The notes: a model not told the origin generated them from the sequence alone. A DNA stretch of 64,000 nucleotides from Chloroflexota bacterium (GCA_016208315.1 JACQYF010000001.1:1-64000); one strand, 5' to 3'. Shown: positions 6,704 to 43,989, counted from the stretch's first letter. A program made the numbers and translations.

Positions 6704-7732
6704 GGAATATCTTCGCCCACAAGTTTCGATGCGTACCAGATGAGATAATCGTTCAGATGCTCGCTCCAGTAATAGCCATCGTGGATGCCAGGCCACGCAT
6801 CGCGCCAATCGTGCGGAATCCCCTTCGCTTCCAAGAGCGTATGGAAGACGACGATGCACCTCTGTGGCGAAGGCGGCGGATTGCAGTCGCGCCATTGATA
6901 ATCGCCGGCGGCTACGTCAATCCACAGAGTCAGTCGACGCGCGGCGTCGGTATGCTCGGCCAGCCAAAACGGATCATATTGATTGTAAAAGTCCCAATCG
7001 CCGAACACCGCGACCGAACCATCCGCTCCGCAAAACCTCGGGATGCGTCATGGCGAGCGTCAGCGCCGATTGCCCGCCCGCCGACAAGCCCCCAATCGCG
7101 CGACTCTGCGACTGCCGGAGCGTTCGATAGTTCGCATCAATATAACTAACCAGGTCTTGCCAAACGTAATCGCCGTACCGTTTACCATCGCTGGCGGGCG
7201 GCGGCGCGTGATTGAACCACCACGATTTATCGCCATCGGGCATCACGACGATCAGCGGCTGGATCTGTCCATTCCGAATGAGCGATTCGAGCGCATCGCA
7301 CAAGCCCCAGTTGACCCATTCGTGCGGATCGCCATCATAGCCCGAGAGCATGTAAAGGACCGGGTAGCGGCGAGGCGTGTCGCCATAGCCGGGAGGCAGA
7401 TAGATCAAGAAGCGCATATCCTGATCGAGAGCTGCGCTGTAAAACCTGCGCGTGATGAGTTGACTCGCGCCGCTCGGTCGCGGAAATTTGGGAAGAGGTG
7501 TGAGCGTGAGCGCGCGGGCGGGCGCGCTCGGCGATGGCGCTTGCGTCGGTTGAGGCGTGATCGCGGGACGACAGGGAGACTGCGGAACGGGTGCGGACGT
7601 TGGCGCGAGCGCAAGGGCGGGTTCGGTTGGATCAGTTGACGCGGCGGGCGCAGGGAGATCGAAGCGAGTATAGCCGCAAGCCGCGCTAAGAGTTAGGGCG
7701 ACTAGCACAAGCCCCAAAGAGAATCGCATCAT
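6700..7732 (-). pseudogene. Secreted esterase (enterochelin-esterase-like), frameshifted by a small deletion
   Basis: The first frame from ATG 7732 has a signal sequence with lipobox-like SAACG, a Pro-rich linker, YLPPGYGDTPRRYPVLYMLSG and the nucleophile elbow GGLSAGGQS, then loses the frame after THPEVL. The alternative frame picks up as GADGSVAVFGDWDFYNQYDP and runs to the family end SKLVGEDIP. Aligned with the intact neighbour at 7729-8832, 32 nt are missing between HPEV and GADGS, which removes the FKVVGAHSPSF-like segment. ATG 7732 overlaps the previous stop (ATGA). The remaining stop codon TAG comes from the adjacent palindrome. Deletion or assembly error cannot be told apart here. Confidence 0.8.
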
Positions 7733-8832
7733 TGTCCAACGAGTTTGGACGAATACCAGGCCAGGTAGTCAGGAACATGGGTTTGCCAATAGATCCATTC
7801 GTGCGGGCCGGGCCAGGTACTCTGCCATTCGTGCGGAATACCTTTGGCGACAAGCAGATCGTGAAACGCCATTACACAGCGGTCGGATTCTGCGCCGCAA
7901 TTGCGTACGTTCTGGTCGTCCGCGCCAACGTCGAGCCAAAGAGCGAGTTGGCGCGCGGCGTCGGTGTTCTGCACGAGCCAGATCGGGTCGAATTGATTAA
8001 AGTAATTCACGTCGTTGATAAAACCGATCGAGCCGTCAGCGCCGCGGAACGATGGACTGTGCGCGCCGACGACCTTGAAGACGTCGGGATGCATCAAGCC
8101 GAACGACAGCGCGCCTTGCCCGCCGAGCGAAAAGCCGCCGATCGCGCGGCTCTCGCGGCGCGCCAGCGTGCGATAATTCGCGTCAATATAATTAACGGCA
8201 TCCTGCCAGATCGCGTCACCCCAGCGTTTGCCGTCCGTGCCGGGACCGTGATTGAAAAAGTACGACGGCTGTCCGCCGGCCATAAATCCATACGGCTGGA
8301 CGATGATGAGTGGTTGGATCTGACCGGAGAGCATCATCGCCTCCGCGTTGTCCTTTAGCCCCCACTCCTCCCATTCGGGCACCAGTTTGTCAAATCCCCC
8401 GTAGCCGTGCAGCATATACAGCACAGGGTAGCGCCGCTGGGGCCATTCATTGTAGCCGGGTGGCAAGTAGATGACAATCCTACGATCCTCATTCAGGGCG
8501 GCGCTGCGATACTTGTTATCAATCCGCGTAATGTGCCCGATTGGCAAAGGAGTGTTGCTCGGCAATGGTGTACGGGTCGGTGTGCGCGTGACGGTCGGAG
8601 TGGCTGTGCGTGTGCGCGTGGGCGTGCGCGTCGGGGTGGACGTATTCGTCGGCGTCCGTCGGAGCGTTGGGCTAGCCAGAGTGGGAGTTGACGTGACGTG
8701 AATAGTTGGGGTCGAGACGGCAATGGGGAGTAAAGTGGCGGCCGGGGTTGGGGGCGGCGCGGTGAGAGCGCATCCGCTGCCCAGGACTGTCATGACGAGT
8801 CCTAGCCCCAAGACAAGAACGGCGCGGCGCAT
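7729..8832 (-). CDS. Secreted putative esterase (esterase D / enterochelin-esterase-like lipoprotein)
   Basis: 367 residues. Signal peptide with lipobox (VLGSGC), then a long Thr/Pro-rich linker (about residues 25-95), then an alpha/beta-hydrolase domain: RIVIYLPPGYNEWPQRRYPV, the nucleophile elbow GGFSLGGQG, and a C-terminal PHEW segment that may carry the catalytic His. Family members cleave ester bonds of varied substrates, including siderophores and cinnamoyl esters; the substrate here is unknown. It is a tandem paralogue of the broken gene downstream, which begins within its stop codon. The upstream hydrolase ends 2 nt before its start, so the three form one operon of extracytoplasmic hydrolases. 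Confidence 0.88.
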   Translation of the reverse strand: MRRAVLVLGLGLVMTVLGSGCALTAPPPTPAATLLPIAVSTPTIHVTSTPTLASPTLRRTPTNTSTPTRTPTRTRTATPTVTRTPTRTPLPSNTPLPIGHITRIDNKYRSAALNEDRRIVIYLPPGYNEWPQRRYPVLYMLHGYGGFDKLVPEWEEWGLKDNAEAMMLSGQIQPLIIVQPYGFMAGGQPSYFFNHGPGTDGKRWGDAIWQDAVNYIDANYRTLARRESRAIGGFSLGGQGALSFGLMHPDVFKVVGAHSPSFRGADGSIGFINDVNYFNQFDPIWLVQNTDAARQLALWLDVGADDQNVRNCGAESDRCVMAFHDLLVAKGIPHEWQSTWPGPHEWIYWQTHVPDYLAWYSSKLVGQ

Positions 8833-8834
8833 TC

Positions 8835-9920
8835 CTAATCGTTCCAGTTGTCGGCAACCTCGTCCTGGCGCAGAAATCGGAGCGCGCCAGAGCGCATATC
8901 AGTCGTAATCTCGTGATCCGCGTTGGGGAAGATGGCCAGGCGTGCGTCCGATCCGATCTGGGTCAGCGCGCCTTGAAACGAGCGCGCGCGATCCACGCGC
9001 GTCTTGCCGCATGAAGAATCAAAGGCGCGCGAGACGTCGGCGCTGCGATTGTCTTTTTCGCCCACGGCCACCCAAAACGAGATCCGCTTGAAATGCGGCA
9101 TGTCCACGGCTTGCCCCAAGAGTTTGGACACGTCCGCGATGCCAAACGGAAAGACCAGCGGCCCGGCGTCGTTTTTGACGAGCGGCATGGTGTACGCGCC
9201 CGCCGAGAGAACGGCGGCGCTCTCGACGTGTTCGGGATAGAATAAAGCAAAGCGATGGCCGAGTTGCGCGCCGCGCGAGAATCCCATGATCAGGGCGTGC
9301 TGCCTCAGTTTCAAGCCCAGGCGCGCCGGCAGCTCGTCCATCATCTTATCGAGATACCCGGTCAGTTCCAAGTCCTCTTGCATGAGCTGGATCGGATCTT
9401 TCCAATCCTTGGTATAAGGCAGCGTCGGCGCGACGAGCAGCCAATTGTTGCGGTCGGCCTCAGCGATAAGCGGCTCGGCGAACCAATCGCCGCGCCCGCC
9501 CATTCCGTGAAGGACGAGCAAGACCCGTAACGCGACGCCCTGCTTGGCCGCCGCAGGCAGGCGGACAAAGACGTCAAAATAATCGGAGGGTGGACCGCGT
9601 GAAATCAGCTTGGGCGCGGCGGCGAGCGCGCGACGCGCGGCTTTGAGTTCAGCTAGCCGATCCTCTGCCAAAATGGCGGGCGGCTCGGGTGCGGGTTTGG
9701 CGGTCGGACTGTCGGCGATGGTGAGATTGGCCGGAGCGATCGTGCCAACAGCCAGCGGTGTGGCGGATATGCTTGGCAGGGCCGATACAGAAAGGGTCGC
9801 CGGAGGGACGACCCTCAAGTTCTCTAGGCGTACCGTTTGCCAACCGGCCCGATCGGGGACGAGTATGATTACCAGCAGAATGCCAAAGAGCAAACCACCG
9901 ATGCGCGATAGTGCTTTCAT
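8835..9920 (-). CDS. Membrane-anchored alpha/beta hydrolase
   Basis: 361 residues. One N-terminal membrane segment (GGLLFGILLVIILV), a low-complexity linker to about residue 95, then an alpha/beta-hydrolase fold: VLLVLHGMGGRGDWFAEPLI (oxyanion-type HG), elbow GFSRGAQLG, and a late NADHEI carrying the probable catalytic His. The layout resembles feruloyl esterase / PHB depolymerase-like secreted enzymes. ATG 9920 is used; the codon before it is TTG. It is the first gene of the esterase operon, behind a TATAAT promoter at 9961-9990. Confidence 0.8.
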   Translation of the reverse strand: MKALSRIGGLLFGILLVIILVPDRAGWQTVRLENLRVVPPATLSVSALPSISATPLAVGTIAPANLTIADSPTAKPAPEPPAILAEDRLAELKAARRALAAAPKLISRGPPSDYFDVFVRLPAAAKQGVALRVLLVLHGMGGRGDWFAEPLIAEADRNNWLLVAPTLPYTKDWKDPIQLMQEDLELTGYLDKMMDELPARLGLKLRQHALIMGFSRGAQLGHRFALFYPEHVESAAVLSAGAYTMPLVKNDAGPLVFPFGIADVSKLLGQAVDMPHFKRISFWVAVGEKDNRSADVSRAFDSSCGKTRVDRARSFQGALTQIGSDARLAIFPNADHEITTDMRSGALRFLRQDEVADNWND

Positions 9921-9960
9921 CAAGTTTATGCGTTGCGGCTCTCGAGATATTTCTGCTCAC

Positions 9961-9990
9961 ATTATACCACGAGAGCGCCGAAACGCACAA
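9961..9990 (-). promoter_or_regulatory. Promoter of the hydrolase/esterase operon
   Basis: Minus strand TTGTGC (9985-9990), an 18-bp spacer and TATAAT (9961-9966), about 40 nt before ATG 9920. Confidence 0.6.
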
Positions 9991-10002
9991 ACTAGGCAGG
10001 GG

Positions 10003-11226
10003 CTAGCGCGGAATGATTCGGAACAAAAACTGGCGTTGAATCATCGCCCAAATGGCGAGCACGGCCAGAAATTGGAGGGCGGTATTAAGCGTGCCCATCG
10101 CCAGAATATTGATCGGCAAATACGGCAGTGCCGCGTAAAAGAGGCCGAACAGCACAATGTGCATTGTGTACGCGTACAGCGAGTTTTGGCCCAAGGGCAT
10201 CAAGAGCCAACCCAACGCGGCCCAAATCGGCTTCCAAAAGAGCGTTACCAGCAGATACGCGAACTGGAAGACGATGAAGCTGGCGATCAACCGCCCCGGC
10301 GCGAGCGCGCTCTTGAGGAAGAAATCGTGCATGAATACCTGGGTGTCGAGTCCGGGCAACAGGCCGTTCAGGAACGTCGCTTGCGTGCCGTTCAATTGCG
10401 CCAACCAGACGAACAGCAGACCCAGAAACAAGAAATAGGGCCAGCGCGGCATCTGGCTCAATTTTTCGATCAACGCTTCGCGATGGTATCCAATGACCAT
10501 CGCGATGAAGAAGAGCAATTGCCATGCCGCAAAGTTGAACGTCGTGTTGCCGTCCACGGGCCAGGGCACCTGAACTTGGGCCGGCGCGATTTGAAACGCA
10601 AGCCACAGTGCAAGCGAAGCCGTGAGCAGCAGCTTGGTATAGCCCTTGTAGAGGAGCCACAGCGCGCCCGCCGCGCCCAGCAACAAAAATGTGTAGAGCA
10701 GCGGGACATCGGTCAAATACATCGTCTGCCGCAGGGTGGCAATGTTTAGCGCGAAGAGGAACGGATTCGTGATGTTCAGCTCTTCCGCCCACTCCATCTG
10801 GAACGCGACGGAGAATATCGCGAAGAGCAAGGTGAGGACGACGGTGAGTTTGTAGAGCGTCCAAGCGCGCTGCACCGCTTTGAGCTGCGCGGCGCGGATG
10901 CCTTGCTTGAGCGCGATGCCGCCATAGACCATGCCGACGACTAGCCCGGAGATGAAAATAAACGCTTCCGCGCCCGAGGTGAAAAAGTTGTTGCCGCCGG
11001 TAATGAGGTACAACCAGGACGAACCCCCAAAATGATTGACGACCATCACGAACACGGCAAAGCCGCGCAAGAGATCGAGACGGAGATCGCGTTTGCCGAG
11101 CGCGGGATAACTCCAATCCCAAGGCCGCCAGTGGGGTAGAGTCCAAAGATTGGGAAAGGTACGTGCCGTCGTGCCAGGCGCCGCAGCGCCATTGCTGGTC
11201 ATCAACTGCGCGTGCTGATTCTTCAT
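10003..11226 (-). CDS. OpgC-domain membrane acyltransferase
   Basis: 407 residues from ATG 11226. About ten hydrophobic segments; the opening RDLRLDLLRGFAVFVMVVNHF followed by GAEAFIFISGLVVGMVYG is characteristic of OpgC proteins, which transfer succinyl groups to periplasmic glucans and belong to the acyltransferase-3-like fold. The late LMPLGQNSLYAYTMHIVL segment also fits. ATG 11226 has a plausible CAGG site 6 nt upstream; in-frame starts as far as 11367 would add a non-hydrophobic tail. Monocistronic, no opgG/opgH nearby, so the acceptor is not known. Confidence 0.85.
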   Translation of the reverse strand: MKNQHAQLMTSNGAAAPGTTARTFPNLWTLPHWRPWDWSYPALGKRDLRLDLLRGFAVFVMVVNHFGGSSWLYLITGGNNFFTSGAEAFIFISGLVVGMVYGGIALKQGIRAAQLKAVQRAWTLYKLTVVLTLLFAIFSVAFQMEWAEELNITNPFLFALNIATLRQTMYLTDVPLLYTFLLLGAAGALWLLYKGYTKLLLTASLALWLAFQIAPAQVQVPWPVDGNTTFNFAAWQLLFFIAMVIGYHREALIEKLSQMPRWPYFLFLGLLFVWLAQLNGTQATFLNGLLPGLDTQVFMHDFFLKSALAPGRLIASFIVFQFAYLLVTLFWKPIWAALGWLLMPLGQNSLYAYTMHIVLFGLFYAALPYLPINILAMGTLNTALQFLAVLAIWAMIQRQFLFRIIPR

Positions 11227-11649
11227 TTTGACCTGCCGTAGATTGGCAACGCTCGCCGGTTTCATCTTCAGTATGTCCGAATTACGTAATAGACGCATAA
11301 AGCGTGTGTAAAATGACTGTAAATCCTCACATGTGGTACTACGGTTCCACGCGCCGCAGAGGTTCAATGATTAATACACTCTCATCCATTCACACAGCAG
11401 ACGCGGGCCTAGATGAGAGAAAATTAACGCGCGCGACGCGCGTCAATATTCTTACGAAGAACTCGGAGGAATGTTACGCGAGTGGCGAGCGCTTTGCGCG
11501 AAATTTCCCTAATGGGTTTCGGCGATTAATTCGTGGAGCAGTGCGGTGAATCGAAACTTGCGAACGGAGGACGCGGAAAAAAACAGAAACCCGGTTTCTC
11601 TCCTGCTCCGCAGGCGCAGCGAAAACGGGTTTGGCGGCAGAACGGATTT
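11227..11649. other. Intergenic region without a convincing gene
   Basis: The part next to the OpgC gene holds its upstream region (AT-rich, no strong promoter consensus found). The part next to the lipoprotein gene holds an AAACCCG-type terminator hairpin. Short open frames here have no recognisable composition or ribosome sites. Confidence 0.5.
11577..11632 (-). terminator. Terminator of the lipoprotein gene
   Basis: Minus strand: AAACCCGTTTTCGC and GAAACCGGGTTT arms with a nested GCCTGCGGAGCAGG-like loop, followed by CTGTTTTTTT. Placed 18 nt after the stop of the lipoprotein gene at 11650. Confidence 0.8.
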
Positions 11650-12318
11650 CTAATTGTGGGCAAAGTCTATGGCGGCGGTATTGCAGCCAGTCGTATCGGA
11701 AGTTTTGAAATATGCGCCGACGGAGATTTGTTGGCCGTTGCTGTCAACGATAAAGACCCACCAGTTCCCATCCATCTGTTGACCCTCGGCTAGGCCGAGC
11801 CGGTACTTCCCCTGGAGGGCAGGATCAACGTGTTTGTAGTCGCTGGGGTCAACGCCGGTGATGAAATCGTCAATGACCGGACTACCGCCGTTTCCATTCG
11901 CGATGCGGACGCGGACGCCATTTTGCGGCACGCCGTTGTCGTAGACGGTTCCCTCGGCGCGTGTGTTCTGTGCGGGCGTGCAAACACTTTTCGCGACGCG
12001 ATAATAGTAACCTTGATAGAGATCGGCGGTGGGCGGCGGAGGCGGCGGCGCGGTCGGCGGGAGAGGTAGCGTGCGCGTCGGCGCGGGACGCGCGGTGGGA
12101 ACGCGAGTTGCGGTGACTGGCCGTACAGTCGGAGCGGGCACGAGCGTGGGCGTCGGCGGCGCGGTGGGCGGAACGCGCGTGAAGGTGGGGCGTACCGTGC
12201 GCGTCACGGTGGACGTCGCCGTCGGCTGCGCGCGGGCGATCACATCGCCAGTGCGGCAGGCGAGCAAGACAAGCCAAACGATACCAAGCAGGACAGGCCG
12301 GGACGCGAATTGTTTCAA
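11650..12318 (-). CDS. Predicted lipoprotein with Pro/Thr linker, function unknown
   Basis: 222 residues, apparently from TTG 12318. Hydrophobic signal ending in the lipobox LVLLAC, then about 80 residues of Thr/Pro/Arg-rich linker and a beta-rich C-terminal domain with TVYDNGVPQNGVRVRIANGN and KYRLGLAEGQ. The latter resembles a carboxypeptidase-regulatory or Ig-like surface domain. It has the same architecture and similar length as the gene at 12985-13653 (CxxxDV after the signal, GTVY in the domain), so the two are paralogues separated by the AMMECR1 gene. Function is not recognised. Confidence 0.7.
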   Translation of the reverse strand: MKQFASRPVLLGIVWLVLLACRTGDVIARAQPTATSTVTRTVRPTFTRVPPTAPPTPTLVPAPTVRPVTATRVPTARPAPTRTLPLPPTAPPPPPPTADLYQGYYYRVAKSVCTPAQNTRAEGTVYDNGVPQNGVRVRIANGNGGSPVIDDFITGVDPSDYKHVDPALQGKYRLGLAEGQQMDGNWWVFIVDSNGQQISVGAYFKTSDTTGCNTAAIDFAHN

Positions 12319-36848: not shown

Positions 36849-36870
36849 TTTTTGGCTTGCACACGCAATG

Positions 36871-36879
36871 TGATATAAT
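36871..36879 (+). promoter_or_regulatory. Extended -10 promoter of the McrBC island
   Basis: TGATATAAT: TG-N-TATAAT with TATAAT at 36874-36879. A weak -35 candidate TTTGGC lies 17 bp upstream (36851-36856). The leader to ATG 37029 is about 145 nt long. Confidence 0.55.
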
Positions 36880-36967
36880 CGGAGTAGAGGATTTTCCGAT
36901 TCCTGTGTATTTCGCCAGAGGTGGCGAAGATGCAACGCAGCAAAGCGAAGCAGAGGAACCTAACAGT

Positions 36968-37005
36968 AGCCCGGCGTGGATTGAAACGTCGGGCTTTGTC
37001 TTTTG
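36968..37005 (+). terminator. Terminator-like hairpin in the leader of the XRE gene
   Basis: AGCCCG and CGGGCT arms around a 16-nt loop, then TTGTCTTTTGTC. Located between the promoter and the XRE gene, it could attenuate the whole restriction operon. Confidence 0.5.
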
Positions 37006-37028
37006 TCGGGAATATCCGACATCCAATT

Positions 37029-37229
37029 ATGGCTCGCTTTGGTGCTGCGTTGCGGGAAAGACGAAAGCAGCAGGGTATGACGCAAGCTGAGCTAGCCGTT
37101 GCTGCTGGCCTGAGTCGTTCCTATCTTTCTGAGGTTGAGTGTGGGCAGGAGAGTATTTCTTTGGAACGAGCAGAGCGGCTAGCCGAGGCCCTCGGCTGCA
37201 AACTGAGTGATTTACTCCAAGGAGATTGA
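37029..37229 (+). CDS. Small XRE-family regulator, controller (C) protein-like
   Basis: 66 residues from ATG 37029. A single helix-turn-helix domain: FGAALRERRKQQGMTQAELA, GLSRSYLSEVECGQESISLE, RAERLAEALGCKLSDLL. Size and placement match controller proteins of restriction-modification systems, which lie directly upstream of the nuclease gene and delay its expression. The mcrB ATG is 3 nt past its TGA, with the ribosome site inside this gene, so translation is coupled. Longer in-frame starts up to 36921 lack a plausible ribosome site. AT-richer than flanking genes. No typical C-box was identified. Confidence 0.75.
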   Translation: MARFGAALRERRKQQGMTQAELAVAAGLSRSYLSEVECGQESISLERAERLAEALGCKLSDLLQGD

Positions 37230-37231
37230 AC

Positions 37232-38830
37232 ATGTTTTATCTCTCGAAAGAGAGCCTCATTGAGTCTACCAAGAGATTGCATGATTCAGGAGCACACGAG
37301 TCATTTCGCAATTATCTTGTTCTGAAGGCGCACGGCTTGAAATTTGGTCATGATAGTTACCTGAGTATTACAACTACGAACACGACGCCGGCACTCCAAC
37401 TGCTTTTTGGGGTTCCTGGTTTGCCAGAGGATGAGCCATTTTACAATCCTCTTCGAAATGAACGACTAAAGCACGATGCTGCCCGAGGCATCATACAGAC
37501 CAACGTTAAGAAATACTTGGATGAAGCCACTAAGACCAAAATGAAATGGCTGGAAGGGCATCAATCTCGGGAACAGGATTGGCTAATCAGATTTAGCGCG
37601 GAATATCCTAATTCGCTTGGTAGGGGTGAGGCTGGACTTGCTGATAAAGATGGTGTTCAACTGACTGTTCACACTCCCAGTTTCGTAATCTGGATGAATA
37701 GGAATAGCGAATGGGAAAGCAGGCCCAACTTTACTTCTCTGTGGATGACCGTGAGAGAATCTCTAAATCTTCATCCGGTCGAAGTCGATTTACTTTTCAC
37801 AAAGGATTCGGATTTTGACCCTGATCCGTTTGTGACGATAGTGCCCGATCGGTCCGAGCTTGTCGAGTTCATCTCAAGGGAAGTTGAGAAAGGCTCTGCA
37901 CGGACGATCCTGAAGTTACCGCAACGTCCTGCGTTTTCAGAGACCAAGATACGACGGATTGTCTCTAGCCATAGCAACACACAGCAGGCTCAGCGTTGGT
38001 GGAGTGCTCAGGATTCAATGAACGAAGCATTGGAGGTATTGCACGAGTCACGTGCATTGTTGCTAGTCGGTCCACCTGGAACTGGGAAAACAAGGTTGGC
38101 GTTTGAGCTAGCCAAGTCCATAATCGGAGAAGATGAAAAACGCCTTCATCTATTTCAATTTCACGCATCTTATGCTTACGAAGATTTCATCGAGGCACTG
38201 AAGCCAGTCCCCATAGGAAGTGGTTTGAGTTTTGAGCCGGTACTTAAACGGTTCGCGCTAGCATGTCAAGTTGGGCGTACTCAAAAGCAAGTTGTCATTC
38301 TAGATGAACTCAATCGGGCAGACGTATCCAAGGTATTTGGAGAGGCCTTTCTGTTAATCGAGCGGGAATACCGAGATGAGAAATACGCGATCCCTCATCT
38401 CTACGATCCGAGTAGAGAATTTTGGATTCCGCCTGATCTCTATGTGATTGCTACGCTCAATGACCTCGACAAGTCAACATACGACCTCGATTTCGCCTTT
38501 CGACGTCGGTTTGGGCAGGTTGATTTGACTCCCAACGCCAACCTGTTAGAAGAAATACTCACGATAGCAGGATGCCAGGACGAGGATTTTATTCGAATAC
38601 TTCGTAGTGCTTTCAATGAGGTACAAACTTACTATCCGTTGGGACACGCCTACTTCAAGTCTGTAAAAGACCGTGAGTCGCTACGATCTACCTACCGACG
38701 CGTGATTCGCCCTACTATTGCGGCGTACTTGGGACTGTATCGAAAGGACGACTTGGTTAGAGTAGACAGTATTTTCAAACGGGTGATTGAGGTACCCACT
38801 TGGGAAGAGTACATTAATGTAGAAGGGTGA
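37232..38830 (+). CDS. mcrB: McrB-type AAA+ nucleotide-binding restriction subunit
   Basis: 532 residues. An N-terminal domain of about 245 residues without a recognised family (GLKFGHDSYLSITTTNTTPA; DPDPFVTIVPDRSELVEFI) is probably the DNA-recognition part. The AAA+ core has Walker A LLVGPPGTGKTRLAFELA, Walker B VVILDELNRADVSKVFGE and the sensor region IATLNDLDKSTYDLDFAFRR, where NDLDKS stands for the MNTADRS signature of McrB GTPases. AGGAG precedes ATG 37232. mcrC follows after 1 nt. In characterised systems McrB translocates along DNA and activates McrC cleavage. Base composition is clearly lower in GC than neighbours. Confidence 0.9.
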   Translation: MFYLSKESLIESTKRLHDSGAHESFRNYLVLKAHGLKFGHDSYLSITTTNTTPALQLLFGVPGLPEDEPFYNPLRNERLKHDAARGIIQTNVKKYLDEATKTKMKWLEGHQSREQDWLIRFSAEYPNSLGRGEAGLADKDGVQLTVHTPSFVIWMNRNSEWESRPNFTSLWMTVRESLNLHPVEVDLLFTKDSDFDPDPFVTIVPDRSELVEFISREVEKGSARTILKLPQRPAFSETKIRRIVSSHSNTQQAQRWWSAQDSMNEALEVLHESRALLLVGPPGTGKTRLAFELAKSIIGEDEKRLHLFQFHASYAYEDFIEALKPVPIGSGLSFEPVLKRFALACQVGRTQKQVVILDELNRADVSKVFGEAFLLIEREYRDEKYAIPHLYDPSREFWIPPDLYVIATLNDLDKSTYDLDFAFRRRFGQVDLTPNANLLEEILTIAGCQDEDFIRILRSAFNEVQTYYPLGHAYFKSVKDRESLRSTYRRVIRPTIAAYLGLYRKDDLVRVDSIFKRVIEVPTWEEYINVEG

Positions 38831-38831
38831 G

Positions 38832-40079
38832 ATGAAATACTTTTCTCTTTACGAAACCCAGCGTCAAGTTATTACGGAGGCTTGGTTTCAGCCAGATATG
38901 CTACCCCCCGATTACCAGGATTACTTGACCCTGGAGTATGATTCTGTCGCCCATCACTGGGCAATTCAGTCTAGTTCCTATGTGGGTATAGTCCCTCTTA
39001 CTCCGGATTACGGGATACAGATTCTCCCCAAGTCGGGACTAAGGAATCTGACATATATGCTCTACCGGAGTGGTCTTCTGAATCATTCTCTGGAAACCCC
39101 ATTTGATGAAACAGTTCCTTATCAAATCCCTGAAGATGATCTAGAATCCTTCTTTGAGGGATTAGTCGAAAGTTTTCTTCAAGCTGTCGACGTAATCAAG
39201 ACATGGGGACTGGTGCGAGAAAGTAGCCCGGAATCTCAAAGCATGTATGTGGTTCGCGGCAAGATTGATTATCCCCGTTGGGCTATTTCTCTTCCTCGGA
39301 CTGGAGGACTGCCTATTCCCCAGCGAGTTTACACGCCAAAGCTTGATAATTTACCGAATCGTATTCTCCGGCGGTGTTTAGAGTATTTGACCCAAGCCCC
39401 GCTCAAGTATGTTAACCGCGACGCTGTTTTAGGGCGATTGGAATATTTCGGTCAAGTGCAGTCCACTCATGTGTCGGCTGAGCAATTGGTTCTAATCGAG
39501 CGTCAATTGGAAACTGGACGGTTCCCTTCCAATCGGTACTACTATTTGCCCGCACTGAACTTGGCATTGCTCATTTTCCGTGGAGCAGGTTTGGCATTGG
39601 GGGATGATCAAGACGTAACTTTCAAACCTATATTGATTAACACTGCCTATATGTTTGAAAAATACATTCGCCTCCTTTGTCAGGAAGCTGCCCAAGCCTA
39701 TGACGCTCATGCAGAAGATGGCAAGCAAAGCCCGATACCTTTCTATCGTGAATCACCCAAGCCAACTTGGATACAACCAGATGTCTTGATTCGCCGCGGA
39801 GGAAGTACACTATTAATCGCCGACGTCAAGTACAAATTCGCGCCAACCGCACAGGATCATTATCAAATGTGGGCTTACATGCATGCTCATCAAATTCAGC
39901 GCGGTGGGTTTATAAGTGTTCTGAGAACAGATGAGGCGTACAATAACAAAAATCCCGCTTGGTTCAAGCGGGATCAGTATTCAGTCTTCGACTATGCTTT
40001 CGATTGTAAACAGATTGGGACATCCGAACAGGCACTTCGCTCGTTTATTGCTGCTCAGATGGGGTTGGTTTCTTCCTAG
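38832..40079 (+). CDS. mcrC: McrC-type nuclease subunit
   Basis: 415 residues. The N-terminal beta-rich part (HHWAIQSSSYVGIVPLTPDY followed by GIQILPKSGL) is typical of McrC, and the C-terminus carries a PD-(D/E)xK nuclease: AYMFEKYI (Glu), WIQPDVLIRRGGSTLLIADV with the DxK completed by KYK. It would cleave DNA when bound to McrB. It starts 1 nt after mcrB and its last 35 bp overlap the end of the convergent methyltransferase gene. Confidence 0.9.
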   Translation: MKYFSLYETQRQVITEAWFQPDMLPPDYQDYLTLEYDSVAHHWAIQSSSYVGIVPLTPDYGIQILPKSGLRNLTYMLYRSGLLNHSLETPFDETVPYQIPEDDLESFFEGLVESFLQAVDVIKTWGLVRESSPESQSMYVVRGKIDYPRWAISLPRTGGLPIPQRVYTPKLDNLPNRILRRCLEYLTQAPLKYVNRDAVLGRLEYFGQVQSTHVSAEQLVLIERQLETGRFPSNRYYYLPALNLALLIFRGAGLALGDDQDVTFKPILINTAYMFEKYIRLLCQEAAQAYDAHAEDGKQSPIPFYRESPKPTWIQPDVLIRRGGSTLLIADVKYKFAPTAQDHYQMWAYMHAHQIQRGGFISVLRTDEAYNNKNPAWFKRDQYSVFDYAFDCKQIGTSEQALRSFIAAQMGLVSS

Positions 40080-41412
40080 TTTTATAACCGGGCTTACGAT
40101 CTAGTAGCGTCTCCTGACGAACCTCGCTGCGTGTAGTATCTCTAGCCCCTCTGTTATCCGTGTTCTTTTGCTTACCATTCAGTGGTTTACTTGGCGCAAG
40201 TAATCGCCGTTCAGATTCACTTACAAATTCCTCAACGATATCACAGCCGAAATAACGACAAGTGAGAATCTTTGCAGCCGCCAATGTTGTACCAGAGCCT
40301 GCGAATGGATCAAATACGAGGTCACCTGGTTTAGTTGACAAGCGCAGACAACGCAAAGGTAACTCTAGCGGAAAAGCAGCCGTATGGTCTCCATGTCGAC
40401 TACTTGTCGGGAATTGCCAAACGGTGCGTAGCTTTCGCTTGGTCCCCATCTCGAAGGTGCGCTTGCCGTTATTTCGCTTTATGACCTCACCTGTGATTGA
40501 AGCTTCAGTTTCTTGATCCTCATAGTACTTGTAAAACCGTGATTTGGTCAGCAACAGGATATATTCATGTGCGGTTGTTGGGCGATCTATAGTCGGCTCT
40601 GGGATCGTGTTCTCTTTGTTCCAGACAATAATAGACCGAACGTAGAATCCCAAGTGTTCTGCGCCGATGGCGACCAGGAACGGAACTAATGTCAAGTCTT
40701 TGTCTTTGAGGTATGAGTGACCCGATGAGTACCGTTTGTTCGGATATTTACTCCACGTGTCATTTCGGTCGCCTTCAAATGCTCTGAGTCGCTCCGTACT
40801 GCTCTCTCGTAAATAGGCGCGAGTCTGGTAGGTATCGCCCAAGTTCCACCATATCGTCCCGTCGTCTCGCAGAACCCGTTTGAGATGGCGAAACACTTCC
40901 AGTGTGTGTGCGACATAGCCGTCCACGGATGGTTCTTCGCCTAGATTGATGCTGGAACCATCTGCCCATTCGATTTTCTCTGAATCAGGGTATTTGCGGA
41001 CACCCCAGTAGGGCGGCGATGTAACGACGGATTGAATGCATTGCGATGGCATCCGGCGCATCCAATCGATACAGTTGCCATGCACTACTTTGTCGTAGAA
41101 AGCTTCTAATGGGTGATGAACATCAACTTCATTCGAGTCTGTATAAAGTAATAAAGATGCTGGGGGCGTACTGGTGAATAGCGCGTTTTCGGGTAAAGTG
41201 ACCCAAAAAGGTTTCTGCTGACCAGCTAAACGCTGTACATCTGCCCAACAAATCATCAAACCTTTTTCAGTTTTGAAATACTTGATTTGATCAGATTTGA
41301 TAAGTTTTCGAAGATGTCTAACTGCAAAACCTGAGAGTTCGGCGGCATCCTGAACATCGATATAGGTATTTGGTTCACTTGGAATAATGTCGTTTGATCT
41401 CACATTCAGCAT
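40045..41412 (-). CDS. Beta-class DNA methyltransferase (N4-cytosine or N6-adenine) with N-terminal HTH
   Basis: 455 residues. Residues 15-70 form an excisionase/MerR-like helix-turn-helix (YIDVQDAAELSGFAVRHLRK). The catalytic motif IV TSPPYWGVR (about residue 130) precedes the SAM-binding motif I VFDPFAGSGTTLAAAKIL (about 365), the order of the beta class, and no target-recognition subunit is fused. TSPPYW occurs in both N4C and N6A enzymes. The C-terminus is basic and low-complexity. It converges on mcrC with a 35-bp overlap and shares its low-GC composition, so it was probably acquired with mcrBC and modifies the sites they cut. Confidence 0.88.
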   Translation of the reverse strand: MLNVRSNDIIPSEPNTYIDVQDAAELSGFAVRHLRKLIKSDQIKYFKTEKGLMICWADVQRLAGQQKPFWVTLPENALFTSTPPASLLLYTDSNEVDVHHPLEAFYDKVVHGNCIDWMRRMPSQCIQSVVTSPPYWGVRKYPDSEKIEWADGSSINLGEEPSVDGYVAHTLEVFRHLKRVLRDDGTIWWNLGDTYQTRAYLRESSTERLRAFEGDRNDTWSKYPNKRYSSGHSYLKDKDLTLVPFLVAIGAEHLGFYVRSIIVWNKENTIPEPTIDRPTTAHEYILLLTKSRFYKYYEDQETEASITGEVIKRNNGKRTFEMGTKRKLRTVWQFPTSSRHGDHTAAFPLELPLRCLRLSTKPGDLVFDPFAGSGTTLAAAKILTCRYFGCDIVEEFVSESERRLLAPSKPLNGKQKNTDNRGARDTTRSEVRQETLLDRKPGYKTRKKPTPSEQQ

Positions 41413-41486
41413 CCAATCGAGAAATGATCGCCTAAGAACCAGTTACCTCAACAGTATTAGCAATGAACACATCAGAACCGTGGACA

Positions 41487-41515
41487 TTATAATAGAGAGT
41501 GTGTCTCTACGCAAG
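41487..41515 (-). promoter_or_regulatory. Promoter of the methyltransferase gene
   Basis: Minus strand TTGCGT (41510-41515), a 17-bp spacer and TATAAT (41487-41492), about 75 nt upstream of ATG 41412. Confidence 0.65.
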
Positions 41516-41549: not shown

Positions 41550-43886
41550 TCAAAAAAGTTCCAACTGCGTCCTCTCCCCCGCCGCGGGCGGCACGAGACC
41601 GGTGATGAGCTGGATGTCGTGCCGCTCGATTTTTTCTGCCTGGAGCAGTTGTTCCGCAAACGGCACGCGCACGAAATCCCAGCCGGCCTCGCGGAACGCG
41701 TCCGCGCGGAGAGGCAGGCGGTGGACGCGCTCGCGGAGCAAGTCCACGCGCGTTTCCGGCACGACGAGATAGCCGCGCGCGGGCGCAATCTGCAAGGGCA
41801 GCAGGTCGTCAAAGCGCGCGCGGTCGCGCCACAGGAAACCGTGCGATATTTCGCCGTCCCATTCCCAGATCAGATCAAACGTCGCCGCGCTCCGCGCGAT
41901 CCGGTATTCCATTCGCTCGCCTAAACGCGCCAGCACATCCAGCGCGTGCGCTTTCTCCGTCTCGGCATCTTCCTCGCGATCGAAGATGCCGCGGTCTCCA
42001 GCGGGATCGAAGATGCCGCGGTCTCCAGCGGTATAATGCCACGCGCCGTCGTGCTCCTCCGCGTACGCGGCCGCGCACAACTCGACCAAGCCCGCTTCCG
42101 GCGTCAGGTCGCCGTGAAACTGGCGATAGATCACCGTTTGCAATTCCTCGCACGCGATGCTGCGATGCGCGGCCAGGATTTCGCGGACGGCGTCGTCCAC
42201 GCGGTCAATCAAGGGCGCATCGCGCGGCGTGGTCGAGCGCAGCCAGATAAAGCGCTCCGGTGTTTCGTAGTGGTCGAGATCGTGCGCGTAGCCCTCGCTG
42301 AGACCTTCCCGCACCGCGTAAAAGACAAACCGATTCGGCGCTAACTTGGTGTTCGCTTTCATCACCTGCGCGAGATACCCTTCGGCAAACGCGCGCGTGT
42401 ACGCCGCGTGATGGACCCACGAATACGCCAGCGGCTCGCCGCGCCGCGTGAGCACCTCACGTCCCGCGGCGAGCGCGGCCGTGCGGATTTTCTCGGCCAA
42501 CTGCGGCTCGGCGAGGATTTTGAGCGGTGCGGGCTGGCGGCGGGAAAAGACGACGCGATAATCGCCTGCGATGCTGTCGAACTCGCGGCGCGGAAAATCG
42601 CCGAGGCGCGGCTGAAATAAAAACGTCTCCAACTCCAAGCGCGCGCCCGCCGCGGCGAGCAGCAGCGTTTCGATCACCTCGTGCCACGTCTCGTCGAACG
42701 CGAACACCGCGTACGCGTCGCGGCGCAGCAGCTTGGCGAGCGCGTCCACTGAGCCGGTAAGCGAATCGAAATACCAGCGGCGCTCCCAGCCCGGATCGCC
42801 CTTGTGCGCGTCGAGCGAGGCGATGAGGGATTCCACCGCGGCGCGGCCCAAAATCCACGCGCCCCAAAAATACGAGAGCGCCCAGACCGCGAGTTTGCGC
42901 GTGGGCGGCGCGGACAGCACCAGCGCGGCGCACTGTTCCGGGACCGCGCGGGCGAGCGCTTTGGCGCTGCCGCGACCGATAAACGCGCGCGGCTCTTGAT
43001 CGGCGAGCACGTCCGCGGTCGAGGTTGCGAGATCGCCGATCGGCTCCGGCGCGTGTTCGCCCAAGGCGTGCGCGGCGGCCTCCATCTCGCGCCAGAGGTT
43101 GAATTCGACAAATTGCTTGTGGACGGTCAGTTGCGGTGGAGCATCGGGCGCGGGATAGAACGACGTGCCGCGGTCGAGCAGGTGCAAAAGCAGGAGCAAG
43201 AGAATATCGCGCTCGCGCGGCTGGCGGAAAAGCGCATCTATCTTGACGGTGAGCGTGACGAGCGCATCGAGATTGCGCGGCGTGTACACGTCGAGGATCT
43301 TGCGAACGCGGTCGGCGTGCAAGTTCTCCGCCGGCACGACGCGCTGAAAAGCGAAATGGTACGCGAGACCGTGCGCGTCGAAAGCCGCGGCGCGTTTGAG
43401 ATCGTCCTCGGTCGCCGAGTCGTCGCGCGTTTCGCCGCAGTGTGCGCAGGTGTAATGGCGGCGAATCGGCCCGGCGTCGCGGGCGTGGATGAAATAATCC
43501 GCGGGCGTCGGCTCGCGGCAGCCGGCGCAGACGGTCGTGTACAGCCGGTTGATGTGCGTGCGGAGCGGGACGTCGTCCTTGAGCGCATCGCCGAGACGCG
43601 CGAGCGCGGCATTCAACTCGGCGGCGGACGGCAGAGCCGCCATCGTGCGCGCGAGCCAACTCCACAGCGGATTGCTCTCGACCGCGATCACGCGCCGCCC
43701 CATTTTTTGCGCGACCCGCGCCACCGTCGCCGTGCTCGCGAACGGATCGAGCACGAGGTCGCCCGGCGCGGTGAGCGCGGCAAGATACTCTGCCGCGACG
43801 GTCGCCGACGGCACGCGCACGTAGCTGCGGAGCGGATAAAACAGCTGGGGATCACGATTCGGGATAAAGCCGGCCGGTACGCTCAT
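41550..43886 (-). CDS. DNA-methylase-fold protein with zinc ribbon and altered catalytic motifs
   Basis: 778 residues from ATG 43886. An early Rossmann SAM-binding region reads LVLDPFASTATVARVAQKMG then RRVIAVESNPLW, close to DPFAGSGT of DNA methylases but with GSG changed to STA. A zinc ribbon follows (CAGC, CAHC, about 120-150). Where a DPPY-type catalytic motif is expected the protein has VLSAPPTRKLAVWALSYF. The C-terminal half is unassigned. Such proteins resemble COG1743-like putative methylases; catalysis is doubtful here. GC-rich like the host, unlike the McrBC island beside it. An 8-residue tandem duplication (AGDRGIFD twice) lies near residue 645. Confidence 0.65.
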   Translation of the reverse strand: MSVPAGFIPNRDPQLFYPLRSYVRVPSATVAAEYLAALTAPGDLVLDPFASTATVARVAQKMGRRVIAVESNPLWSWLARTMAALPSAAELNAALARLGDALKDDVPLRTHINRLYTTVCAGCREPTPADYFIHARDAGPIRRHYTCAHCGETRDDSATEDDLKRAAAFDAHGLAYHFAFQRVVPAENLHADRVRKILDVYTPRNLDALVTLTVKIDALFRQPRERDILLLLLLHLLDRGTSFYPAPDAPPQLTVHKQFVEFNLWREMEAAAHALGEHAPEPIGDLATSTADVLADQEPRAFIGRGSAKALARAVPEQCAALVLSAPPTRKLAVWALSYFWGAWILGRAAVESLIASLDAHKGDPGWERRWYFDSLTGSVDALAKLLRRDAYAVFAFDETWHEVIETLLLAAAGARLELETFLFQPRLGDFPRREFDSIAGDYRVVFSRRQPAPLKILAEPQLAEKIRTAALAAGREVLTRRGEPLAYSWVHHAAYTRAFAEGYLAQVMKANTKLAPNRFVFYAVREGLSEGYAHDLDHYETPERFIWLRSTTPRDAPLIDRVDDAVREILAAHRSIACEELQTVIYRQFHGDLTPEAGLVELCAAAYAEEHDGAWHYTAGDRGIFDPAGDRGIFDREEDAETEKAHALDVLARLGERMEYRIARSAATFDLIWEWDGEISHGFLWRDRARFDDLLPLQIAPARGYLVVPETRVDLLRERVHRLPLRADAFREAGWDFVRVPFAEQLLQAEKIERHDIQLITGLVPPAAGERTQLELF
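41973..42033. repeat. Tandem 24-bp duplication inside the methylase-fold gene
   Basis: GATCGAAGATGCCGCGGTCT plus CCAGCGG occurs twice in a row, giving a duplicated AGDRGIFD in the protein and keeping the frame. Confidence 0.8.
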
Positions 43887-43893
43887 CGGGAAA

Positions 43894-43922
43894 AGTATAG
43901 CACATCTGGGGGAGGGAAACAA
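43894..43922 (-). promoter_or_regulatory. Promoter of the methylase-fold gene, likely leaderless
   Basis: Minus strand TTGTTT (43917-43922), a 17-bp spacer and TATACT (43894-43899); 7 nt from there to ATG 43886. Confidence 0.65.
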
Positions 43923-43989
43923 GGCAAATCGCCCCGCAAATTGACACACTTTTCCAGGTCAACCGTTATAGCCGGCAGAGGAGGTTCGA

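What the first reader, a model, noticed from the sequence alone, without database searches (positions are those of the whole stretch)
36849..41515. C-protein/McrBC/beta-class methyltransferase island: a LlaJI-like restriction-modification system
Seen: a 66-residue XRE protein, mcrB and mcrC follow each other with 1-3 nt gaps; a DNA methyltransferase with TSPPYW and DPFAGSGTT converges and overlaps mcrC by 35 bp; the block is visibly AT-richer than both flanks. Known: classical McrBC cuts modified DNA and has no partner methylase, whereas LlaJI uses McrB/McrC-like subunits with 5mC methylases and many R-M systems use small XRE controllers. Inference: this is a controller-regulated McrBC that cuts unmodified (or differently modified) sites protected by an N4C/N6A beta-class enzyme. 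The McrB N-terminal recognition domain and the methylase's HTH N-terminus look unusual.
Basis: partly seen in the sequence, partly recalled or inferred. Interest (0 to 1): 0.85.

Follow-up and report, generated by a model that had tools for sequence, protein, structure and literature searches.

The report
McrBC restriction-modification cassette with shared recognition domain
A four-gene island, inserted as one block between two ordinary genes, most likely makes a DNA-cutting machine of the McrBC kind together with the enzyme that marks the cell's own DNA as safe; its DNA-reading domain belongs to a small family that also turns up, always beside the same kind of marking enzyme, on other cutting machines including a Septu system.

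Summary
In detail: XRE (66 aa), mcrB, mcrC and a convergent beta-class DNA methyltransferase (MTase) sit at 36.9-41.4 kb in a block of 46-53% G+C against about 60% around it. Two relatives of the same family have the flanking genes adjacent, so the block is one insertion. Ordinary McrBC loci do not carry this MTase. But the closest relatives of this MTase sit beside an McrB-like AAA+ gene and a PD-(D/E)xK nuclease gene (L194, L195, Rhodococcus fascians plasmid), in two cases in the same convergent layout. The McrB N-terminal 225 residues look like an orphan, but a profile built from five MTase-linked systems picks out this McrB first among 4,180 ORFs (E 2e-4; next 0.9). One of the five, found by N-domain profile alone, is an MTase-PtuA-PtuB (Septu) operon. 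Best reading: a modification-blocked (Type II-like) McrBC whose N-domain reads the site that the MTase protects. It works like LlaJI, LlaI, BsuMI and PcaI but is not a LlaJI member (no two C5 MTases, no B3 domain detected). The XRE as controller is plausible, untested. Confidence 0.75. New variant of a known kind; the shared N-domain/MTase module with changeable effectors is the new part.

The parts
36852..36879 (+). promoter-like TTGGCT-16-TATAAT upstream of the XRE-mcrBC operon
   Evidence: no more such sites in the region than in shuffles (5 found, 5.7 expected), so only suggestive
36878..36900 (+). inverted repeat ATCGGA-11-TCCGAT, possible XRE operator
   Evidence: perfect 6-bp arms; function not tested
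37004..37021 (+). inverted repeat TGTCGG-6-CCGACA just upstream of the XRE start, possible XRE operator
   Evidence: perfect 6-bp arms; function not tested
36968..36995 (+). terminator-like hairpin (10 bp stem, T-rich tail) in the leader of the XRE gene
   Evidence: function unknown
37029..37229 (+). XRE-family small HTH protein (66 aa), candidate controller
   Evidence: Pfam HTH_3 1e-17; best PADLOC model Control_protein PDLC03665 2.5e-15
37232..38830 (+). McrB-like AAA+ motor (532 aa)
   Evidence: PF07728 4.4e-17; E. coli McrB structures 4.7e-33; NxxD signature N410-D413
37232..37906 (+). McrB N-terminal domain (residues 1-225): predicted DNA-recognition domain shared with MTase-linked McrB-like and PtuA proteins
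   Evidence: profile without the window sequence finds it at E 2e-4, next 0.9, and no shuffle of 500 comes near; only PADLOC hit PDLC00270 positions 2-174, E 0.0023
38832..40079 (+). McrC nuclease (415 aa), PD-(D/E)xK intact
   Evidence: PF10117 3.2e-27; PDVLIRRGGSTLLIADVK at residue 316
40045..41412 (-). beta-class (SPPYW) DNA methyltransferase (455 aa), convergent, 35 bp overlap with mcrC
   Evidence: PF01555 3e-46; 100/100 clade with MTases of L194, L195, L149, L187, L196
36849..41549 (.). inserted block between the DUF58 gene and the 799-aa gene
   Evidence: flanking genes adjacent in G303 (29 bp apart) and G310; G+C drop

Best explanation
The block is a complete, horizontally acquired restriction-modification system. 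[quoted passage not shown] If the site is unmodified, the McrB AAA+ ring (NxxD class, so probably GTP-driven) recruits McrC and moves along the DNA, and McrC's PD-(D/E)xK centre cuts. The convergent beta-class MTase methylates the same site in host DNA, more likely m4C than m6A, and so blocks binding or cutting. The XRE protein probably autoregulates the operon to delay the nuclease until the host is methylated. Shown here: genes, intact motifs, one-block insertion, linkage of this MTase clade to McrB-like/nuclease pairs, homology of the N-domain across MTase-linked systems. Inferred: site recognition by the N-domain, cutting of unmodified DNA, GTP use, type of methylation, role of XRE.
For: Single insertion of exactly these four genes. 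Motor and nuclease motifs intact. Of 127 MTase relatives on loci in hand, those ranked 1 (L194) and 3 (L195) by similarity to this MTase lie within 6 kb of an McrB-like AAA+ gene by a profile built without them; rank 2 (L149) lies beside a more divergent AAA+ gene plus PD-(D/E)xK gene. Same layout AAA+ > nuclease >< MTase: 35 bp overlap here, 26 bp in L195, 7 bp gap in L194. N-domain homology: profile from five other systems puts the window McrB first of 4,180 ORFs, E 2e-4; a six-member profile finds the domain in none of the roughly 80 ordinary McrB loci among 8,738 ORFs. Independent checks: L280 was found by the AAA+ gene and L308 by the N-domain; both have a related TSPPYF MTase adjacent. 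MTase association of McrB-like GTPases is a known trend (PMC11090510), and restriction of unmethylated DNA by an McrBC-like system is shown in vivo for LlaJI (PMC1459862) and PcaI (PMC8989522).
Against: N-domain similarity is low (16-23% identity) and the fold could not be predicted (pLDDT 31 and 38), so DNA binding by it is inference. Few systems are known. The nearest MTases also occur without AAA+ genes (L187, L196). No AAA-core homologue elsewhere in the phylum sample carries this MTase next door. L149's AAA+ gene is missed by the classical McrB profile. No methylation or cleavage data.
Confidence: 0.75

Rival explanations
1. Ordinary Type IV (modification-dependent) McrBC and an unrelated orphan, phage-type MTase that happen to share an island; the MTase has no part in self-protection.
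For: PF10117 McrC and E. coli McrB-like AAA core; MTases of this broad class are common in phages; phage-borne sister L196 has no AAA+ gene.
Against: The McrB N-domain is shared with MTase-linked systems, not with ordinary McrB loci; the sister MTases lie beside McrB-like/nuclease genes in the same layout; no DUF3578/SRA, YTH or EVE domain was recognised in McrB by Pfam or PDB sequence search.
Confidence: 0.15
2. McrBC recognises DNA carrying a different modification while the MTase competes for or masks the same sites (a mixed modification-dependent and modification-blocked system).
For: Such a continuum has been proposed (PMC3874153); both components are intact.
Against: Nothing in the sequence calls for it; no known modified-base reader domain was recognised in McrB.
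Confidence: 0.06
3. The system is broken or silent: a remnant island kept by chance.
For: No expression data; host genome is an incomplete assembly; a terminator-like hairpin lies before the XRE gene.
Against: All four frames are open, with intact catalytic motifs and tight operon spacing.
Confidence: 0.04

Closest known systems
LlaJI (Lactococcus; McrBC-like Type II R-M)
   Same: McrB-like plus McrC-like restriction subunits with cognate methylation; targets unmethylated DNA in vivo (PMC1459862)
   Different: two C5 MTases for an asymmetric site; R1 uses a B3 domain; here one beta-class MTase, an XRE gene and another N-domain; only the AAA core matches
LlaI and BsuMI (three-ORF McrB-like restriction cassettes)
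   Same: McrB-like R-M cassettes; from memory, LlaI also has a small controller (LlaI.C) and an adenine MTase, so the combination controller + McrB-like + non-C5 MTase is not new
   Different: LlaIB and BsuMIB are about 340 aa, smaller than R1.LlaJI, in three-ORF cassettes (PMC1459862)
PcaI (Dcm-like MTase + McrBC-like REase)
   Same: MTase plus McrB-like/PD-(D/E)xK REase with an unrelated N-domain, restricting unmethylated DNA (PMC8989522)
   Different: C5 MTase, CCNGG; nuclease with large extensions; here canonical PF10117 McrC
E. coli McrBC (Type IV)
   Same: McrB AAA core and McrC family
   Different: no cognate MTase; N-domain DUF3578 reads modified cytosine; not found here
Septu PtuA1/PtuB1 (PADLOC PDLC00270/PDLC00348)
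   Same: PDLC00270 positions 2-174 match the window's McrB N-domain (E 0.0023); L308 has this PtuA, a PtuB and an MTase in one operon
   Different: different ATPase (AAA_21/AAA_15) and nuclease; the other PtuA models listed match only the ATPase part of L308's PtuA, not the N-domain

Membership tests
McrBC family (McrB-like AAA+ plus McrC) | McrB AAA core with Walker A and NxxD signature | tested here: met
   AAA_5 4.4e-17, McrB structures 4.7e-33, GPPGTGKT and N410xxD413
McrBC family (McrB-like AAA+ plus McrC) | McrC partner with PD-(D/E)xK | tested here: met
   PF10117 3.2e-27; PD..DVK
McrBC family (McrB-like AAA+ plus McrC) | GTP-dependent translocation and cleavage | not testable with these tools
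   biochemistry needed
Type IV McrBC (modification-dependent) | N-domain that reads modified bases (DUF3578/SRA, YTH, EVE) | tested here: not met
   no such domain by Pfam or PDB sequence search; remote similarity not excluded
Type IV McrBC (modification-dependent) | no cognate MTase | tested here: not met
   MTase in the same insertion; sister MTases beside McrB-like genes
LlaJI family | two C5 MTases | tested here: not met
   one N6_N4_Mtase, no C5 MTase in the block
LlaJI family | R1 N-terminal B3 domain | tested here: inconclusive
   no B3 hit by sequence; no usable fold
LlaJI family | R1 similarity beyond the AAA core | tested here: not met
   585-aa REase_II model (same length as R1.LlaJI) matches only McrB 264-428
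MTase-linked McrB-like R-M systems (L194/L195/L149 type) | shared N-domain on the McrB-like protein | tested here: met
MTase-linked McrB-like R-M systems (L194/L195/L149 type) | MTase of the same clade next to the AAA+/nuclease pair | tested here: met
   100/100 clade; layouts
C-protein-controlled R-M | small XRE gene upstream of the REase genes | tested here: met
   37029-37229
C-protein-controlled R-M | C-boxes bound by the controller | tested here: inconclusive
   inverted repeats upstream of XRE, none shared with the MTase promoter region
Septu | PtuA ATPase and PtuB HNH nuclease | tested here: not met
   window has McrB and McrC; only the N-domain is shared

The most novel reading that the evidence does not exclude
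The McrB N-domain together with its SPPY-type MTase is an exchangeable specificity module: the same recognition domain family, each time with a related MTase, has been attached to McrBC (window), to McrB-like motors with other PD-(D/E)xK nucleases (L194, L195, L149, L280) and to a Septu PtuA-PtuB pair (L308), turning each effector into a modification-blocked R-M system.
Probability: 0.55. Interest if true: 0.75.

Novelty: new variant of a known kind. Interest (0 to 1): 0.58.

Why it matters
McrBC is the textbook enzyme that cuts modified DNA; systems that turn the same engine on unmodified DNA are few and poorly understood. This cassette ties a previously orphan McrB N-terminal domain to a methyltransferase clade and to a Septu variant, which would give a testable account of how different defence effectors acquire self/non-self discrimination by borrowing one recognition domain and its matching methylase, and would predict self-protection by methylation for one subgroup of Septu.

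Tried and rejected
McrB-based scans of genome contigs and viral contigs found only AAA-core relatives; one viral locus (L088) has McrBC plus MTases, but without this N-domain. The McrB N-domain alone found nothing in 300 genomes of the phylum or in plasmids; McrC found nothing in plasmids. Pairwise comparison of the window N-domain with the R. fascians one was not significant (111 of 2000 shuffles reach it), so homology was claimed only from multi-sequence profiles. MTase searches of 400 genomes of the phylum, 399 of the Gordonia order and 396 of the class gave one close full-length sister (G038/L187) without AAA+ gene and few others. G218:C6, with McrB and MTase about 3 kb apart, was rejected: ordinary McrBC and a more distant MTase in another gene group. 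Folding the N-domain alone or with two homologues failed (pLDDT 31, 38), so no fold search was made. No common operator was found upstream of XRE and MTase. No held paper was found that describes Septu with a cognate MTase; the search covered only open-licence papers and the four hits were not read in full.

Full report
OBSERVATION. Intergenic gaps are 2 and 1 nt. Pfam gives HTH_3, AAA_5, McrBC (PF10117) and N6_N4_Mtase; the best solved relatives are E. coli McrB for the motor and CcrM and an N4-cytosine MTase for the methylase. Walker A, the NxxD signature (N410..D413), PD..DVK in McrC and the MTase motifs TSPPYW and DPFAGSGTT are intact. G+C is 46-49% for 37-41 kb and 53% in the next kb, against about 60% in the flanks.

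ONE INSERTION. The DUF58 gene on the left and the 799-aa gene on the right are old neighbours. In G303, of the same family, they lie convergent with a 29 bp gap, and in G310 they are adjacent too. In the window 4.7 kb holding exactly these four genes lies between them. The genes therefore sit in one insertion, and its boundaries speak against misassembly.

ORDINARY McrBC LOCI LACK THIS MTase. Fifty-six loci from a scan of GTDB genomes and about 30 from the phylum match only the AAA core of McrB, and none has this kind of MTase directly beside it. The McrB N-terminal 250 residues matched nothing in 300 genomes of the phylum or in plasmids.

SISTER MTases DO LIE BESIDE McrB-LIKE GENES. Following the MTase changed the picture. 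The nearest plasmid relative (Rhodococcus fascians, L149) lies beside an AAA+ gene and a PD-(D/E)xK gene. A viral-contig scan with a three-MTase alignment found L194 and L195. In both, the MTase converges on a nuclease gene that follows an McrB-like AAA+ gene: L194 MTase 7890-9221 (+), nuclease 9229-10512 (-), AAA+ 10454-12127 (-); L195 MTase 7602-8930 (+), nuclease 8905-10119 (-), AAA+ 10123-11787 (-), with a 26 bp overlap of the 3' ends. Among 127 MTase relatives on loci in hand, those ranked first and third by similarity to the window's MTase have an McrB-like gene within 6 kb by a profile that was built without them; the second is L149, whose AAA+ gene (NxD type) is too divergent for that profile. 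In a maximum-likelihood tree the window MTase forms a 100/100 clade with L194, L195, L149, L187 and L196; the last two have no AAA+ gene near them. An Ensifer plasmid (L283) has the same layout with other proteins, 56 bp overlap.

THE McrB N-DOMAIN IS NOT AN ORPHAN. BLASTP of L195's AAA+ protein against the window McrB runs from residue 4/3 to 491/488 (E 4e-13, carried mostly by the AAA core). A profile of the N-domains of L195, L194, L149 and L280, without the window, ranks the window McrB first of 4,180 ORFs at E 0.008. PADLOC's PDLC00270 (PtuA1, Septu), within positions 2-180, is the only library hit of the window N-domain (E 0.0023), of L195 (1.4e-11), L194 (7.6e-4) and L280 (0.018); L149 gives none. 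A search with the three-member N-domain profile in 74 related genomes found one further locus, G857 (L308): an operon of MTase (TSPPYF), PtuA with this N-domain (PDLC00270, E 1.7e-238) and PtuB (PDLC00348, E 1.4e-67). Adding L308 improves the profile: the window McrB stands at E 2e-4, the next ORF at 0.9, and none of 500 shuffles comes near. A six-member profile finds the domain in no other of 8,738 ORFs on 308 loci, which include about 80 ordinary McrB loci. L280 and L308 were found by AAA+ gene and by N-domain, not by MTase, and both have related MTases next door, 52% identical to each other, although one has an McrB-like/PD-(D/E)xK effector and the other PtuAB.

MECHANISM. LlaJI (PMC1459862) and PcaI (PMC8989522) are McrBC-like systems that restrict unmethylated DNA, and target choice lies, or is thought to lie, in a distinct N-domain of the McrB-like subunit. 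By that analogy the N-domain here reads a site, McrB/McrC translocate and cut, and the MTase protects the host's copies. The systematic pairing of the N-domain with SPPY-type MTases is what one expects if both read the same site. m4C is somewhat more likely than m6A: the SPPY motif, and relatives beside XcyI-family endonucleases and a Pac25I MTase, are typical of N4-cytosine MTases by general knowledge. The XRE protein matches control-protein models best and has inverted repeats upstream, but no XRE gene stands directly upstream at L195, L149 or L308, and L194's upstream DNA is not held; similar small HTH genes lie near other MTase/McrB-like cassettes (L282, L304, L305).

KNOWN AND NEW. McrB-like R-M systems are a known kind (LlaJI, LlaI, BsuMI, PcaI), and a census reported frequent MTase association of McrB-like GTPases as a likely ancestral trait, with details left to a later paper (PMC11090510). 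The cassette is therefore a new variant, not a new category. It fails LlaJI's defining features (two C5 MTases; R1 similarity beyond the AAA core). What I did not find described is the N-domain family itself and its sharing, with cognate MTases, between McrB-type and Septu effectors; the paper search was limited to open-licence literature.

LIMITS. The N-domain homology is remote (16-23% identity) and rests on profiles of few sequences. No fold could be obtained. No methylation, binding or cleavage data exist. L149's AAA+ gene is divergent. Some neighbourhoods end at contig edges.

Noticed in passing
L308 4880-8344 (G857:C206): A Septu operon (PtuA1 of PDLC00270 with the N-domain, PtuB1) directly behind a TSPPYF methyltransferase: possibly a modification-blocked Septu.
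   Followed up: partly
window 41553-43949: The native right-hand neighbour (799 aa) carries a partial N6_N4_Mtase match (DPFASTATVARVA) and is conserved in most related genomes; function unclear.
   Followed up: partly
L194, L195, L149, L187 MTases: Sister MTases have S(T/S)PYW instead of SPPYW at catalytic motif IV, losing the first of the two prolines.
   Followed up: no
L196 659-1927: A phage-like contig (portal and protease genes) carries a sister MTase without AAA+ or nuclease gene; could be phage self-protection against such restriction systems.
   Followed up: no
L088 1556-8102: Viral contig with XRE, HTH_17-like protein, beta-class MTase, C5 MTase, a 250-aa protein, McrB and McrC in a row: another McrBC-plus-MTase cassette with a separate possible recognition subunit.
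   Followed up: partly
L283 5182-9363: Ensifer adhaerens plasmid: AAA+ and nuclease genes converging on and overlapping a DNA methyltransferase by 56 bp, same layout with other N-domain and MTase.
   Followed up: partly
L187 733-3253: Close sister MTase lies behind a ParB-like gene on a probably mobile contig, without McrB-like genes.
   Followed up: no
window 36968-36995: Terminator-like hairpin between the promoter-like site and the XRE start codon; attenuator or insulation against upstream transcription.
   Followed up: no
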